A DNA stretch of 41,303 bases from Candidatus Uhrbacteria bacterium RIFOXYB12_FULL_58_10 (GTDB lineage: Bacteria > Patescibacteriota > Patescibacteriia > UBA9934 > GWF2-40-263). Positions 24,696-30,267 of this stretch are shown one piece after another. The DNA is taken from contig CALRBH010000007.1 in NCBI GenBank assembly GCA_943354165.1, forward strand, positions 1 to 41,303, in the 5' to 3' direction. Position numbers and translations under genes: made by a program. Below the pieces are notes generated by a model that made no database searches, was not told where the DNA came from, and saw nothing but the letters and a program-made list of their open reading frames with translations. The first letter of the stretch is position 1. Each line of letters starts with the position of its first letter.

Positions 24696-25943
24696 ATGCC
24701 GTCAAAGAAGAAGTTGGTGAAGAAAGCTGTCGTGAAGTCCAGCAAAAAGCCTGTCGCAAAGAGTGCGCCTAAGAAGGTTCACCCGCCGCGCGGCAAATAC
24801 GTGAAGGCACTTCCTCCGTCCGAGGACATGATCGCCAACATGTTAAAGAAAGGCCAGTCTCGCGGGTTCATCACCGAGAACGAGATTCTCTTTGCGTTTT
24901 CCGAGGTAGAAGATTACCTGCCGGTGTACGAGGATTTCCTTGAACGATTGGAACGCATAGGCGTTCACCTCATCGAGATGAAAGACGGCATTCTCGGCCG
25001 CGATAAGGATCGCAAGGACGTGTACGACAAGATCCGCGTCACGCACGAAAAGGAAAAGCAGCCGACCAAGAAAACGACCGCATCCGTCACAGGTGGCGCA
25101 GAAAATTCGATTCCAGAACTCACGCAGGACTCCATCCAGATGTACCTGCGCGAGATCGGAAAAATCCCTTTGCTTACAGGTGAAATGGAAGTCGCGCTCG
25201 CTAAGCGAAAGGAACGCAACGATAAGGAAGCGGACCGCCGCCTCATCGAAGCCAACCTGCGTCTCGTGGTTTCCATCGCGAAGAAATTTGTCGGCAAGCA
25301 GATGTCACTTCTCGACCTGATTCAGGAAGGGAACATCGGTCTCTTCCGCGCGGTGAAGAAATTTGAATATCGAAAGGGCTACAAGTTCTCCACGTACGCC
25401 ACGTGGTGGATTCGCCAGGCCATCACGCGCGCGCTTGCGGACCAGTCCCGCACCATCCGTATTCCGGTGCACATGGTGGAAACCATCAACCGCTTCATGC
25501 AGGTGGAACGCCAGCTCATTCAGGACCTCGGCCGCGAGCCGTTGCCTGAGGAAATCGCCGCAGAAATGAACGAGCCGCTGGATAAGGTTCTTCACATCCG
25601 CAAGATTTCTCAGGAAACTGTTTCGCTCGAAACGTCAGTGGGTGATGACGATGAAGACTCCAAGCTCGAAGACTTCATCGAAGATACAAAGACGATCAGC
25701 CCAGACCGTGCCGCCGCTCGCGAACTCCTTCGCGACTACGTGCACACGGCCATGAAAGATCTTTCGCCACGTGAGCAAAAGATTCTCGAAATGCGTTTCG
25801 GCCTTACGGACGGCGTAAGCCACACGCTTGAGGAAGTCGGAAAGGAATTCGATGTTACGCGTGAACGTATTCGTCAGATCGAAGCGAAAGCGCTCGAAAA
25901 GATTCAGGCGAATCCGATTATTGCTAAGTTGCGCGATTACTAG
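24696..25943 (+). CDS. rpoD: Primary sigma factor RpoD/SigA
   Basis: A 415-residue housekeeping sigma factor. A Lys-rich N-terminus and region 1.1-like helix ([16 protein letters not shown]) precede region 1.2 ([17 protein letters not shown]), region 2 ([41 protein letters not shown]), region 3 and region 4 with a helix-turn-helix ([21 protein letters not shown]). It recognises TTGACA/TATAAT-type promoters, consistent with those seen here. Downstream lies the second TTAGTAGTAAGTAG repeat. Confidence 0.97.
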
Positions 25944-25946
25944 GAC

Positions 25947-26030
25947 GAGTTAGTAGTAAGTAGATAGTAGTTAGTAGAGTTACGATCATTCCGTAAATCC
26001 TACTAACTACTTACTACTATCTACTAACTT
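25947..26030. repeat. TTAGTAGTAAGTAG inverted repeat, copy 2
   Basis: The left arm GAGTTAGTAGTAAGTAGATA.. (25947-25977) is near-complementary to the right arm ..CTACTTACTACTATCTACTAACT (26000-26030). The arms match copy 1 (21964-22036) closely, while the loop differs. It fills the gap between rpoD and the ECF sigma gene and could act as terminator of rpoD, although there is no clean T run. Confidence 0.85.
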
Positions 26031-26036
26031 TTCATT

Positions 26037-26068
26037 TTGCAACGATGCGCGGGGTTTTGTTATATACT
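26037..26068 (+). promoter_or_regulatory. Promoter of the ECF sigma gene
   Basis: TTGCAA (26037-26042), then TATATA (26061-26066, 18-nt spacing) overlapping TATACT (26063-26068). The leader to ATG 26096 is about 20 nt. Confidence 0.5.
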
Positions 26069-26095
26069 TGTGAAAGGTTCGTAACTCCTTGCCCT

Positions 26096-26731
26096 ATGGA
26101 AGAAGAAAAGGAGGTGGTAGAGCAAGCTAAATCTAACCCCGAAGCCTTCGGCCGGTTGTACGATGCGTACTACCAGCCGATCTTCGGCTATCTCGCCAAG
26201 CGCGTCGGCAGCATCGAGAGCGCGCAGGACCTCGCAAGTGAAACGTTTTTCCAGGCCTTTAAGAATATTGGCCGATATCGCCAGGAAGGGAAGCCGTTTA
26301 AGGCGTGGTTGTACGCCATTGCCGTTGCGCAGGTAGGGAATTTCTTCCGGGCGCGCAAACGTAACCTTCCCATCCTTTCGGAAGAGTTTCCGGAGGTGGC
26401 GGCAGACGAAATGATGCGGCCGGACGTTCAATACATCGAGGATGAAGACAATGCGGAGCAGAAAGCCCAATTAGTCCAGATGAAACGCCATCTCATAAAG
26501 CTGAAAGAGAAATGGCAAACCATCCTCACCTTGCGCTACTGGCAGGACATGACCATCCCGGAGATCGCGGTGGCTCTGAATATGAAGGAAGGAACCGTAA
26601 AATCCCACATTCATCGCGCACTTAAGCGCCTCCAAACCCTCATGGCAGAAGAAGCCGCTCAAGAAGCCTATGCCCGAACCCCTGAGCCTAAACCATATCG
26701 AGAACTTGCTCATGCAAATGGGCAAGGATGA
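26096..26731 (+). CDS. ECF-type RNA polymerase sigma factor
   Basis: Region 2 is seen in GRLYDAYYQPIFGYLAKRVG, DLASETFFQAFKNIGRY and KPFKAWLYAIAVAQVGNFFR. Region 4 is QTILTLRYWQDMTIPEIAVALNM followed by KEGTVKSHIHRALKRL. I choose ATG 26096 (211 residues) over ATG 26045. The 62-nt overlap with the next gene, a single-span membrane protein, fits a sigma/anti-sigma pair. The trigger cannot be seen. Confidence 0.88.
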   Translation: MEEEKEVVEQAKSNPEAFGRLYDAYYQPIFGYLAKRVGSIESAQDLASETFFQAFKNIGRYRQEGKPFKAWLYAIAVAQVGNFFRARKRNLPILSEEFPEVAADEMMRPDVQYIEDEDNAEQKAQLVQMKRHLIKLKEKWQTILTLRYWQDMTIPEIAVALNMKEGTVKSHIHRALKRLQTLMAEEAAQEAYARTPEPKPYRELAHANGQG

Positions 26732-27080
26732 ACGCATCGGCGAGGCTAAGCACCGCTATGCGCTCCGCCGGGCCCTTATGAACTCCGCCGCCACGACGTC
26801 TGCGGCGGAGCCCGTATTCGCCTGGCTTTCGACGACCGGTATGGTGTTTGCTACAGGAGTCGCTACGGTTGCCGTGGTGATCGTCGTGAGATTCTCTGAC
26901 TCCACGGGCGCGGCGGAACAGCTGGCTTCGATTCCGGAGCAGCCGGCCGTGGAAGACATTCAGCTCAGTGTCCGTGAACTTGAACCATCGCCATTTGCCA
27001 CGTACGCAGATTTCCGTCCAATTCCTGCGCGTGAGATTTTCGAAAACATGCAAATTCGGCTTGCTGGAGTGGCAAGGTAA
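26670..27080 (+). CDS. Single-span membrane protein, likely anti-sigma partner
   Basis: A 136-residue protein with about 45 cytosolic residues (KDERIGEAKHRYALRRALMN), one membrane helix (about 55-73, GMVFATGVATVAVVIVV) and an outer tail. It begins inside the ECF sigma gene (62-nt overlap), the usual arrangement for a membrane anti-sigma factor. No zinc-binding ZAS cysteines or named anti-sigma domain are visible, so the role rests on position and topology. ATG 26712 is a possible later start. Confidence 0.6.
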   Translation: MPEPLSLNHIENLLMQMGKDERIGEAKHRYALRRALMNSAATTSAAEPVFAWLSTTGMVFATGVATVAVVIVVRFSDSTGAAEQLASIPEQPAVEDIQLSVRELEPSPFATYADFRPIPAREIFENMQIRLAGVAR

Positions 27081-27092
27081 CGGTTAAGCCAA

Positions 27093-27120
27093 AGCCTGTT
27101 GAACAACAGGCTATTTTGGT
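27093..27120 (+). terminator. Terminator after the ECF/anti-sigma pair
   Basis: AGCCTGTT (27093-27100) pairs with AACAGGCT (27105-27112) around a GAAC loop, followed by ATTTTGGTTT. Flanking CCAAA/TTTGG extends the fold. Confidence 0.7.
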
Positions 27121-27156
27121 TTAAACTTTTGGGAATATAACTACCAAAATAAAGGT

Positions 27157-28134
27157 ATGTCCGACCACACATTACCGTCCATAAAGTCACTCCTGACTGA
27201 ATTGCTGGACAAGGCAAAGAAACAGTGGAAAACGCTCGTGATCATTGCCGTCATTCCATGGGGAGTATTCATTGCCTCCGCGGTGTTGCTCGCTGTGGTC
27301 GGGATTGCGTTTGGCTTGTCGGTGGGAGGACAGTCTATGATGAGTCCAAACACCATGTCACCTGAGACGTACATGGGCCAAGGGATGTTTCTCGGAATCC
27401 TCGCGTTGGTATTCGCGGCGATTAACATGCTCGCAAGCTTTGTTGGCGGGCTGGCACTCATTTACGCCACGTTGCATCCGGATTCGGACGTACGAGCGTG
27501 CTATCTCATGGCGCTAAAAGTGTGGAAGTCGCTCCTGTGGGTTTCATTGATTGCAGGGTTCGTTTTGATCGGCGGCACCTACCTTTTTGTCATTCCAGGG
27601 CTTGTGGTGGGCCTCATGCTCGCGTTTGCGGAATATGTGGCGCTTGATGAAGGGAAGAAGGGGATGGATGCGCTCATGCGTTCACGCGAGCTCGTGAAAG
27701 GCCGTGGATGGTCCGTACTGTTTGTATTGATCGTTATGGGCATTGTGATAGGTATTCCAAGCCTGATTCTGGGCTCTATTGCCGATCAGGGAAACGAGGT
27801 ATTTGGATTCCTTTCTTCTGCTTATGATGGACTGGTGGCGATGCCGCTGTACGTCCTCGCGGGCGCCATCGTGTACCACCATGCAAAAAAACTTCCTTCG
27901 CTTGCCGGTCCGGAAGTAAATGCACGGAACGTTTACAAAGGCTTGGGCATTCTCGGTGTCGTCGGTATTATCTTTATTGTGCCAGCGTTCATCTTCATTG
28001 CGATAAGCGTGCTTTCGGGCGGAGGGTTCGGGCCCATCAATCAAGAAAATTTTGACAGCTTCGACTGGACCGGATCCGACATCCAATACGCCCCTGACAT
28101 TTCTGCCGGGGAGACCATCCTCATCCAGCAATAG
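27157..28134 (+). CDS. Multi-pass membrane protein
   Basis: A 325-residue protein with about six hydrophobic helices (for example TLVIIAVIPWGVFIASAVLL, LLWVSLIAGFVLIGGTYLFV). A central YVALDEGKKGMDALMRSRELV loop between membrane helices resembles the GDPD-membrane-domain / YciC (DUF975-like) proteins. The C-terminal tail is acidic and outside a helix. No catalytic motif is seen. Function unknown. The structured RNA candidate begins just past its stop. Confidence 0.75.
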   Translation: MSDHTLPSIKSLLTELLDKAKKQWKTLVIIAVIPWGVFIASAVLLAVVGIAFGLSVGGQSMMSPNTMSPETYMGQGMFLGILALVFAAINMLASFVGGLALIYATLHPDSDVRACYLMALKVWKSLLWVSLIAGFVLIGGTYLFVIPGLVVGLMLAFAEYVALDEGKKGMDALMRSRELVKGRGWSVLFVLIVMGIVIGIPSLILGSIADQGNEVFGFLSSAYDGLVAMPLYVLAGAIVYHHAKKLPSLAGPEVNARNVYKGLGILGVVGIIFIVPAFIFIAISVLSGGGFGPINQENFDSFDWTGSDIQYAPDISAGETILIQQ

Positions 28135-28142
28135 GCAAACTA

Positions 28143-28338
28143 AAACCCCACCAGCTCACGCGTTTTGGACTAGATGATAGTCGGGGCCGACACAAGGTCT
28201 GCCCGCGAGGCTCTCATGGCATGGACAAGTCCATGCCGGTTCTAAGCCTACAAAACGATTAGCCAAAGCGTGAATCAAGTGGAGTCTGCCTTGAGCGTAA
28301 CACGAATAAAATAACTCGGAAACGGTCCCGAGTTTTTC
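28143..28338 (+). ncRNA. Candidate branched structured RNA ending in a terminator
   Basis: In a 286-nt gap without a convincing gene, several helices nest. An outer stem is CCAC (28148-28151) with GTGG (28279-28282). P1 is CACGC..TTTGG (28157-28168) with CCAAAGCGTG (28263-28272). Inside are three hairpins: GACTA-gatga-TAGTC, CGGG..CCCG with GAC/GTC, and GGCATGGAC-AA-GTCCATGCC, a perfect 9 bp within AGGCT/AGCCT. A terminator follows at 28313-28338. The fold does not show SRP, tmRNA, RNase P or 6S signatures that I know. It could be a 3'-UTR element of the membrane protein, a stand-alone RNA, or a cis-element for the sigma gene. No convincing promoter was found before it. Confidence 0.5.
28313..28338 (+). 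terminator. Terminator of the structured RNA candidate
   Basis: AACTCGG (28313-28319) pairs with CCGAGTT (28328-28334) around 8 nt, followed by TTTCGT. Confidence 0.75.
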
Positions 28339-28420
28339 GTGAGAAGGTATCGTCGTCAATCGTTGACGGGACACGTTCCAATACATAGGCTGGGGTAGGT
28401 CTTTTACGAAAGGAGTCTAC

Positions 28421-29320
28421 ATGTCACAACGAGACGGAAATATGAGGTTCCGTCGCGGTGACGTCGGGCCCCTCATGAAAGCGGCCATGCGTGCACCTTT
28501 GCTCACACGTGAAGAGGAGATTACGCTCGGCATGTGCGCGATCCCGTCATGGGAGGCGCAGACGCGCGGTGTCATTGACCCGGTCTCGCGCCGGATCTGG
28601 CAACGGGCGGGAAATACCTTCATGGCGCACAATCTCCGGCTGGTGATGAAAATCGCCTTGCGGTTCCAGCATCGCGGACTCGAGCTCGAGGATTTGATGC
28701 AGGAAGGCACCATCGGACTGCAAAAAGCGGCGGAACGTTTCGACTATCGCAAGGGATTCAAGTTTTCTACCTATGCGACCTGGTGGGTCAGGCAGGCCAT
28801 GCAGCGGGGCATTGGAGACATGGGTCGTGACATACGGTTGCCGATCAACCAGAGCGCCATGGCCGTGGAAATCCTGCGCACCGAGGATTACATTCGAGCG
28901 AGGGTGCGAAGAGAGCCAACGCAGGCAGAAGTTGCTTACTTCCTCGGTATTACGGAAGAGAAGATCGGACAGATCAAGGTTCAATCGCAATCGCCGGCCT
29001 CGCTGGACGGGCTCGTAGGGCCAGACGGGGATCAGACGCTCCAAGACCTCCTTCCTGACGTGGCAAAGCTTCAGGATGTGCGGTGTGAGGAGGCAGAGAC
29101 CTCGCTGCGCCTTAAGCGAGCGATCGGACGGATCGCCTCGGAAAAGACGCGTACGGTCCTGTTGGCCCGCTTCGGGTTTACGGGCGGGGACATTGAGACG
29201 TTGTTGGACATCGGGAAGACGATGGACGTAAGTCGTGAACGGATTCGCCAGATTGAGTCCATCGGATTACGACAACTACGGAACGATAAGCAGCTGCGCC
29301 GTGATTTCGACGCGGACTGA
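28421..29320 (+). CDS. Alternative sigma-70 family factor (group 2/3-like)
   Basis: A 299-residue sigma factor. Region 2 ([40 protein letters not shown]) and region 4 ([20 protein letters not shown]) are conserved. The N-terminal 1.1 region is lost and region 3 is shortened. A GAAAGGAGTCT Shine-Dalgarno sits before ATG 28421. It follows the structured RNA and a possible own promoter (TTGACG..TAGGCT, 17 nt). The stimulus is unknown. Together with rpoD and the ECF gene, three sigma genes lie within 5 kb. Confidence 0.9.
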   Translation: MSQRDGNMRFRRGDVGPLMKAAMRAPLLTREEEITLGMCAIPSWEAQTRGVIDPVSRRIWQRAGNTFMAHNLRLVMKIALRFQHRGLELEDLMQEGTIGLQKAAERFDYRKGFKFSTYATWWVRQAMQRGIGDMGRDIRLPINQSAMAVEILRTEDYIRARVRREPTQAEVAYFLGITEEKIGQIKVQSQSPASLDGLVGPDGDQTLQDLLPDVAKLQDVRCEEAETSLRLKRAIGRIASEKTRTVLLARFGFTGGDIETLLDIGKTMDVSRERIRQIESIGLRQLRNDKQLRRDFDAD

Positions 29321-29352: not shown

Positions 29353-30267
29353 TTATTGGCCTTTTGAAAGGTGAAGCGTCGATCGGTCGCGTTCGATCAT
29401 GCCGTCCGCAATCATGCGGTCGATCATGGCACGCACCCACTGAGCGTCGTTTACGGAATTGTAGGACGGGTCAATGCGCCCGCCGACGGCTGATTCCTTG
29501 ATGCGAGGGTTCTCGCGGACCAATCGAAGAATTCTCCCCCGATAAATGCGATCAGGATGAGACTTTCCCACTTGAATCGTCTCCTTTGCCTTCTTGATCG
29601 CCGCTTTTGGAATACGGACACGCCCCGCAATGAACTTCTCTGCCATCGGACACTGTTTGCGCAGCGGACACTCCGCACACGAGGGGGTCTTTTTGCAGAC
29701 GATGGTGGCGAGGTCGAACAGCGCCTGGGGAATCTCCCAGAACTTCCGTGACGACTTCATAAGATCGATCGACTTTCTGCGAATGCGTTCATCGTCATCG
29801 AGTTGGGAAAAAGGTTTCGCGAGAAGTAGGCGACCGAGCACACGTCGAATGTTCGTATCTACGGGCATGGTGCGCTTGTGGTTGGCAAAGACGGCGAGGG
29901 CCGCCGCGGTGTACGGGCCAATGCCTTTCAGAATGCGCCAGCCATCCTCTGTGGTCGGTTCACTGTTTTTCGCTACGCTGCGGGCAATATCGCGCAACAT
30001 AAGCCCGCGGCGATTGTAGCCAAGTCCGGCCCACATCGTAATTACCTCTGCATTTGTGGCCTTGGCGAGTTCGTTCCAGTTCGGAAACGTTTCCATCCAT
30101 CGATCGTAAAATCCGAGCACACGCGACACCTGCGTTTGCTGGAGCATGACCTCGCTGACGAGGATCCGGTACGCGTCCCGCGTCTCTCTCCAGGGCAGGG
30201 TGCGACCGTGCGTTTCATACCAACGCAATAGCTGTGAGCTTAGGGATGTTTTCGGGGAGGTATACAC
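29353..30267 (-). CDS. mutY: A/G-specific adenine glycosylase
   Basis: Removes adenine mispaired with 8-oxoguanine. The catalytic Glu in SEVMLQQTQ, the helix-hairpin-helix (LKGIGPYTAAALAVFA), the catalytic Asp in PVDTNIRRVLG and the 4Fe-4S cluster (C-x6-C-x2-C-x5-C in CKKTPSCAECPLRKQC) are all present. The C-terminus, however, is a short winged-helix-like segment rather than the NUDIX-like 8-oxoG recognition domain. The start is GTG 30267. Divergent from the possible small RNA at 30303. Confidence 0.93.
   Translation of the reverse strand: MYTSPKTSLSSQLLRWYETHGRTLPWRETRDAYRILVSEVMLQQTQVSRVLGFYDRWMETFPNWNELAKATNAEVITMWAGLGYNRRGLMLRDIARSVAKNSEPTTEDGWRILKGIGPYTAAALAVFANHKRTMPVDTNIRRVLGRLLLAKPFSQLDDDERIRRKSIDLMKSSRKFWEIPQALFDLATIVCKKTPSCAECPLRKQCPMAEKFIAGRVRIPKAAIKKAKETIQVGKSHPDRIYRGRILRLVRENPRIKESAVGGRIDPSYNSVNDAQWVRAMIDRMIADGMIERDRSTLHLSKGQ

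What the first reader, a model, noticed from the sequence alone, without database searches (positions are those of the whole stretch)
28143..28338. Branched structured RNA candidate between a membrane-protein gene and a sigma gene
An orphan gap of 286 nt holds nested helices: a long-range P1 with a further outer 4-bp stem, three inner hairpins including a perfect 9-bp one, and a terminator. This is more order than chance sequence usually shows, and it matches no RNA class I can name. If conserved, it could be a new CPR RNA or a regulator of the adjacent sigma factor.
Basis: partly seen in the sequence, partly recalled or inferred. Interest (0 to 1): 0.7.

Follow-up and report, generated by a model that had tools for sequence, protein, structure and literature searches.

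The report
New pseudoknotted RNA family in Uhrbacteria
The gap holds a real gene for a small structured RNA, read from the opposite strand to the one proposed; the same RNA occurs about once per genome in most relatives of this tiny uncultured bacterium, matches no catalogued RNA, and its job is unknown.

Summary
The fold is real, but the RNA is on the MINUS strand (about 28287 to 28143), not the plus strand. Covariance models find it in 33 of 43 genomes of the window's family (Candidatus Uhrbacteria), in two sister families, and in divergent form in three more families of the same class. It is normally single-copy. None of 346 sampled genomes from other classes of the phylum has it.

Support is strong: on a sequence-only alignment, 216 base-pair cells changed on both sides versus 86 in shuffles (0/500). 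A TGnTAnnnT-type extended -10 box sits 3-6 nt before the RNA start in nearly all members. A terminator or U-tract usually follows. Five hits were independent of model training.

Consensus fold: closing stem P1-P2, a central pseudoknot, a hairpin (P4) with a nearly invariant internal loop, and a P5-P8 domain that the window copy lacks. Rfam gives no match in any member tested. tmRNA and RNase P have their own genes.

In Uhrbacteria it usually lies between an ECF-sigma/anti-sigma operon and mutY; elsewhere it is near tRNA genes. Orientation varies, so it is an independent trans-acting RNA, not a leader of the sigma gene. Function is inferred, not shown.

The parts
28143..28287 (-). structured RNA gene, short form of the new family (R3 model match 28144-28287)
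   Evidence: R1 94 bits, R2 52.5 bits, R3 76 bits; window copy is in the R1 and R3 training sets, not in R2's; fold z -3.71
28294..28302 (-). extended -10 promoter element TG-T-TACGCT; RNA start inferred near 28287
   Evidence: -10-type hexamer 3-6 nt before the model start in all 39 aligned members (weak in two), TGn before it in 31
28278..28287 (-). P1, 5' strand (pairs 28143-28152)
   Evidence: P1 helix 79% paired on a sequence-only alignment
28143..28152 (-). P1, 3' strand, followed by a UUUUAGUUU tract (possible terminator)
28260..28274 (-). P2/P3 composite, 5' strand (UUCACGCUUUGGCUA), includes segment a1 UUUGG
   Evidence: family covariation
28154..28172 (-). P2/P3 composite, 3' strand (UAGUCCAAAACGCGUGAGC), segment b2
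   Evidence: family covariation
28245..28249 (-). P4, 5' strand (AGGCU, pairs 28208-28212)
   Evidence: P4 99% paired, all five pairs covary
28208..28212 (-). P4, 3' strand (AGCCU)
28238..28244 (-). conserved P4 internal loop, 5' side (UAGAACC)
28213..28217 (-). conserved P4 internal loop, 3' side (AUGAG)
28218..28237 (-). P4b hairpin GGCAUGGA-CUUG-UCCAUGCC; sequence free, pairing kept in relatives
   Evidence: helices 6 and 7
28204..28207 (-). conserved CGCG after P4
28184..28204 (-). single hairpin that stands where long-form members carry P5-P8
28180..28186 (-). CCCCGAC, segment b1; UUGG/CCGA pseudoknot partner of a1 in the family
   Evidence: (95.8% paired in long forms)
28313..28334 (+). 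intrinsic-terminator-like hairpin, not part of the RNA; probably ends the plus-strand operon
   Evidence: the scan scored it on the minus strand; the plus strand also has a TTTTT tail
26045..27080 (+). ECF sigma factor and overlapping anti-sigma-like gene, conserved neighbours
29353..30267 (-). MutY-like glycosylase gene, conserved neighbour on the other side

Best explanation
The minus strand of 28143-28287 is a gene for a stand-alone, trans-acting structured RNA of a family not in Rfam. It is transcribed from its own extended -10 promoter. It folds into a core closed by P1-P2, with a pseudoknot between UUGGGC near the 5' end and GCCCGA near the 3' end that crosses helix P3, and ends just after P1. 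The nearly invariant P4 internal loop plus the pseudoknot are the likely binding surface for a protein or for the ribosome or RNA polymerase, so it most likely works as the RNA of a small housekeeping ribonucleoprotein. Shown computationally: conservation, strand, fold, promoter, independence from neighbour genes, restriction to the class. Inferred: expression, trans action, protein binding.
For: Usually one hit per genome in 33 of 43 family genomes, 2/2 of f2 and 3/5 of f3. Five hits not used in training, all in the same class, none in about 346 genomes of other classes; read by eye, they keep P2 and P3 with different letters. Sequence-only alignment: 77% of cells paired vs 64% shuffled, 216 vs 86 double changes, 0/500; slid controls collapse. 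P3 tested without column alignment: own pairing beats swapped, 0/500 and 0/2000. G-U exceeds A-C among non-Watson-Crick cells (109 vs 56) and UUUU follows the minus-strand 3' end in 32/39 versus 16 on the other strand. Promoter. No Rfam match. Neighbours change orientation and identity, and other families place it near tRNA-Phe or tRNA-Pro.
Against: No transcript data. The window copy is a short form (145 nt) lacking P5-P8, with a weak -10 (TACGCT) and no separate terminator; it could be under relaxed constraint, though the same short form recurs in L028, L045 and L048. Not found in family f4 (0 of 23) or genus g6 (0 of 3), so it is not essential to the whole order unless it has diverged beyond detection. 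No protein partner is identified.
Confidence: 0.6

Rival explanations
1. Functional analogue of 6S RNA: binds RNA polymerase holoenzyme and tunes sigma-70 transcription. These genomes have no recognisable 6S RNA and the locus lies beside rpoD and an ECF sigma operon in many members.
For: 6S absent in 10 of 10 genomes; neighbourhood of rpoD/ECF; own promoter.
Against: No long rod with a central open bubble; instead a pseudoknotted multi-branch core. The 6S model rings in only 6 of 14 control genomes, so absence is weak. In other families it sits by tRNAs, not sigma genes.
Confidence: 0.13
2. Base-pairing regulator acting on the convergent transcript: in the window the RNA is antisense to the 3' region between the membrane-protein stop codon and the plus-strand terminator.
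For: In the window and several relatives the ECF/anti-sigma operon runs towards it on the other strand.
Against: In many relatives the operon and the RNA are on the same strand, so antisense overlap is not conserved; what is conserved is structure, not an exposed seed sequence.
Confidence: 0.1
3. Catalytic or ligand-binding RNA acting in trans (ribozyme or sensor) built on the pseudoknot and P4 internal loop. The repeated UUUGG segments a1 and a2 both match b2 and could also be a two-state switch.
For: Nearly invariant internal loop in a variable stem; a1:b2 and a2:b2 both supported.
Against: No expression platform or regulated gene in line; no Rfam match to any ribozyme or riboswitch family. 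A single nested-plus-pseudoknot fold also explains both pairings.
Confidence: 0.1
4. Divergent form of a known housekeeping RNA (SRP RNA, tmRNA, RNase P RNA).
For: Housekeeping-like distribution; no SRP RNA found by small or large models.
Against: tmRNA and RNase P have separate genes. No SRP tetraloop/S-domain motif in the RNA; one near-complete genome (G019) also lacks the Ffh/FtsY GTPase motif, so an SRP RNA is not expected there.
Confidence: 0.03
5. One reading: cis-acting regulator of the adjacent sigma gene on the plus strand.
For: Adjacent position; terminator hairpin on the plus strand before the sigma gene.
Against: Promoter, U-tract and G-U bias point to the minus strand; the RNA reads away from the sigma gene; that gene is not at the site in relatives.
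Confidence: 0.03

Closest known systems
6S RNA (RF00013)
   Same: single-copy stand-alone RNA of about 150-240 nt with its own promoter; 6S itself is not detected in these genomes
   Different: no sequence/structure match; pseudoknotted multi-branch core instead of a rod with a central bubble
tmRNA (RF00023) and RNase P RNA (RF00010)
   Same: housekeeping-type distribution, pseudoknots
   Different: both have their own separate genes here; ARAGORN finds no tRNA-like domain at three members
Orphan bacterial RNA classes found by comparative genomics (as a kind: raiA, OLE and similar motifs, recalled from memory)
   Same: large conserved fold, covariation, unknown function
   Different: no Rfam relationship; confined to one class of Patescibacteria in this sample

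Membership tests
New RNA family defined here | P1-P2 closing helix, P4 with UURGAAC/GAGAG-type loop, CGCG after P4, P3 | tested here: met
   window copy has P1, P2, P4, P4b, loop and CGCG; P3 is reduced to a 3-bp extension of P2
New RNA family defined here | P5-P8 domain with CGGU-tetraloop-ACUG hairpin (optional domain) | tested here: not met
   absent in the window copy and in L028, L045, L048; present in long forms, so it is optional, not defining
New RNA family defined here | extended -10 promoter just upstream of P1 | tested here: met
   TGT-TACGCT 6 nt before the model start
6S RNA | match to RF00013 | tested here: not met
6S RNA | binds RNA polymerase, templates pRNA | not testable with these tools
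   needs biochemistry
SRP RNA | match to RF00169 or RF01854 and an Ffh partner | tested here: not met
   no Ffh/FtsY motif in genome G019
tmRNA / RNase P RNA | match to family models at this locus | tested here: not met
   separate genes exist
Riboswitch or cis leader | conserved in-line position upstream of a gene on the same strand | tested here: not met
   downstream genes vary and are often convergent

The most novel reading that the evidence does not exclude
A lineage-specific housekeeping ribonucleoprotein RNA, ancestral to one class of CPR bacteria and kept in most Uhrbacteria despite genomes of about 1 Mb, carrying out a general cellular function that no known RNA performs there.
Probability: 0.35. 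Interest if true: 0.88.

Novelty: categorically new. Interest (0 to 1): 0.74.

Why it matters
An RNA kept as a single copy across most of a bacterial group with very small genomes is unlikely to be dispensable. It has its own promoter, dozens of compensated base pairs and no Rfam relative. It gives a concrete handle on non-coding biology in CPR bacteria, where little is annotated, and the alignment defines exact nucleotides to probe. The novelty is at the level of the RNA family; the function is open.

Tried and rejected
Exact core pattern in viral contigs: five hits, judged chance because they lack the flanks and one overlaps a tRNA. Phages, distant blastn: none. Exact core pattern across the phylum: only the window and one chance-like hit; covariance models were needed. 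The early assumption of the plus strand was dropped when relatives showed TATAAT boxes on the other side. MAFFT column pairing for P3 failed (32% paired) because segment a2 is misaligned; replaced by per-sequence duplex and flank tests. Pseudoknot evidence is weaker than for other helices: pairing 95.8% but swapped control 19/500, because the letters hardly vary. K-turn reading of P4 considered and not claimed: the sequence does not fit beyond the first family. Coding: most members have stops in all six frames and lengths differ by non-multiples of three. Literature searches found no description of it; bioRxiv and most subscription papers were not searchable.

Full report
OBSERVATION. The 286-nt gap between the membrane-protein gene (27157-28134, +) and the sigma-70-like gene (28421-29320, +) is real. 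Its plus strand folds better than 199 of 200 shuffles, z -3.0. The minus strand of the core folds better than all 200, z -3.7. Rfam finds nothing at curated thresholds, and nothing meaningful at E up to 10 on either strand.

FINDING RELATIVES. A DNA search of relatives gave one weak hit around the hairpin. The shared core read on the minus strand is GGCUUAGAACC-hairpin-AUGAGAGCC-CGCG. A pattern built from it found a third genome. Aligning the three showed that, outside the window, a TATAAT box lies just before the minus-strand P1 and a terminator just after it, so the strand was revised. A first covariance model (R1, 88 positions) found the core in most genomes of the family, normally once per genome. 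A full-length model (R2) and a widened one (R3) extended this. Counting, 33 of 43 genomes of the family carry it, one more has a copy cut off after about 35 nt, and it is in 2/2 of f2, 3/5 of f3 and 0/23 of f4. In a phylum-wide sample of 380 genomes R3 rang in 7, all in the same class, none in about 346 others. Five of these (G142, G241, G315, G331, G381; E 1.5e-11 to 5.7e-5) had not been used for training. A pattern scan of 84,980 species hit 18 contigs; most titles say Candidatus Uhrbacteria, the rest say Parcubacteria or just bacterium.

ANATOMY (RNA strand, 5' to 3'). P1 (CUCCAC..GUGGAG); P2 (CUA-AUUU..AAAU-N-UAG); a bulge with GGGC; P3 (GGCU-type..AGCC); P4 with a 5-bp stem, a nearly invariant internal loop and hairpin P4b with free sequence but kept pairing; CGCGG; P5; P6 capped by P7 (CGGU, UUCG or GNRA-type loop, ACUG); P8; CCCGACU; then the 3' strands. 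Segment a1 (UUGGGC) can pair with b1 (GCCCGA), which crosses P3 and makes a pseudoknot. Segments a1 and a2 both carry UUUGG and both match b2. The 5' flank of a1 covaries with the 3' flank of b2 (columns 20-22 with 305-307), and the 3' flank of a2 with the 5' flank of b2 (0/2000 swaps). One nested P2-P3 stack plus the pseudoknot explains all of this; a two-state switch is not excluded.

COVARIATION. On A3, a MAFFT alignment not fitted to any structure, 24 sequences and 54 pairs give 77.3% paired versus 63.6% shuffled, 216 versus 86 doubly changed cells, covariation score 0.419 versus 0.196, all 0/500; sliding one column drops pairing to 43-50%. The structure was partly chosen by looking at this alignment, so the slid control flatters it somewhat. 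On the model-fitted A5 (39 sequences) it is 87.3% and 444 versus 139 (leans towards the structure). P4 is 100% paired on A3 with four of five pairs changed on both sides. P3 duplex energy own -7.43 versus swapped -6.28 kcal/mol, 0/500. The pseudoknot is 95.8% paired but nearly invariant, so its covariation support is weak (19/500). The untrained hits keep their helices with other letters, e.g. P3 in L157 UUUGGUUGA/UCAACCAAA and P4 in L158 GGGAUC/GAUCCC (read).

STRAND AND TRANSCRIPTION. All 39 aligned members have a hexamer with A2 and T6 three to six nt before the model start (two are weak, GATCGT and GAGGTT), and 31 have TG one base before it. The best -10 match is 5 or 6 of 6 in 24 of 39 on this strand versus 1 of 39 on the other. 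UUUU occurs within 60 nt of the 3' end in 32 of 39 versus 16 on the other strand; non-Watson-Crick cells are G-U 109 versus A-C 56. In the window the box is TGT-TACGCT (28302-28294), a weak type but identical in hexamer to L048.

CONTEXT. In Uhrbacteria the gene usually lies beside the ECF/anti-sigma operon, with mutY on the other side and rpoD nearby, in either orientation. In f6, f13 and f14 it lies near tRNA-Phe or tRNA-Pro genes in six of the seven loci examined, in several of them directly upstream. The window's membrane-protein gene and second sigma gene are not at the site in relatives. That argues against a cis role on the sigma gene and for an independent RNA.

WHAT IT IS NOT. RNase P RNA and tmRNA have separate genes. 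6S and both SRP RNA models give nothing in the genomes tested. No member tested matches Rfam at its own coordinates. Reading frames are interrupted and lengths are not in threes.

MECHANISM. Shown computationally: a conserved, minus-strand, independently promoted, pseudoknotted RNA. Inferred: expression, trans action, and a ribonucleoprotein role with the P4 loop as contact site. The window copy is a short form (also in L028, L045, L048) that keeps the core and lacks P5-P8, which suggests the core is the working part.

LIMITS. Genomes are metagenome bins; absence can be incompleteness. Searches over 40 genomes used strict filters. E-values are rough. No expression data, and preprints could not be searched.

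Noticed in passing
G019 (L104-L153), and genomes: No SRP RNA by small (10 genomes) or large (8 genomes) models, and no Ffh/FtsY-type DTAGR GTPase motif in a near-complete genome of the family although EF-Tu-type motifs are found: the SRP pathway may be missing.
   Followed up: partly
L019 about 1590-1740 (G062): A roughly 125-nt inverted-repeat insertion sits inside the P5 loop of this RNA; the rest of the RNA is intact.
   Followed up: no
L051/L101 (G025): Promoter and first 35 nt of the RNA are intact, then the sequence diverges completely: broken gene or assembly chimera.
   Followed up: no
L017 (G020:C14) and L044 (G020:C30): Two different copies in one bin; one resembles the copy of its own genus, the other that of other genera. 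Could be contamination or a real second copy.
   Followed up: no
L098, L102, L157, L158, L159: In other families of the class the RNA lies just upstream of tRNA-Phe(GAA) or tRNA-Pro(GGG), like a stable-RNA cluster.
   Followed up: partly
window 24696-29320: Three sigma-70 family genes (primary sigma, ECF, and a region 2-3-4 sigma) lie within 5 kb; the last was not seen at this site in relatives.
   Followed up: no
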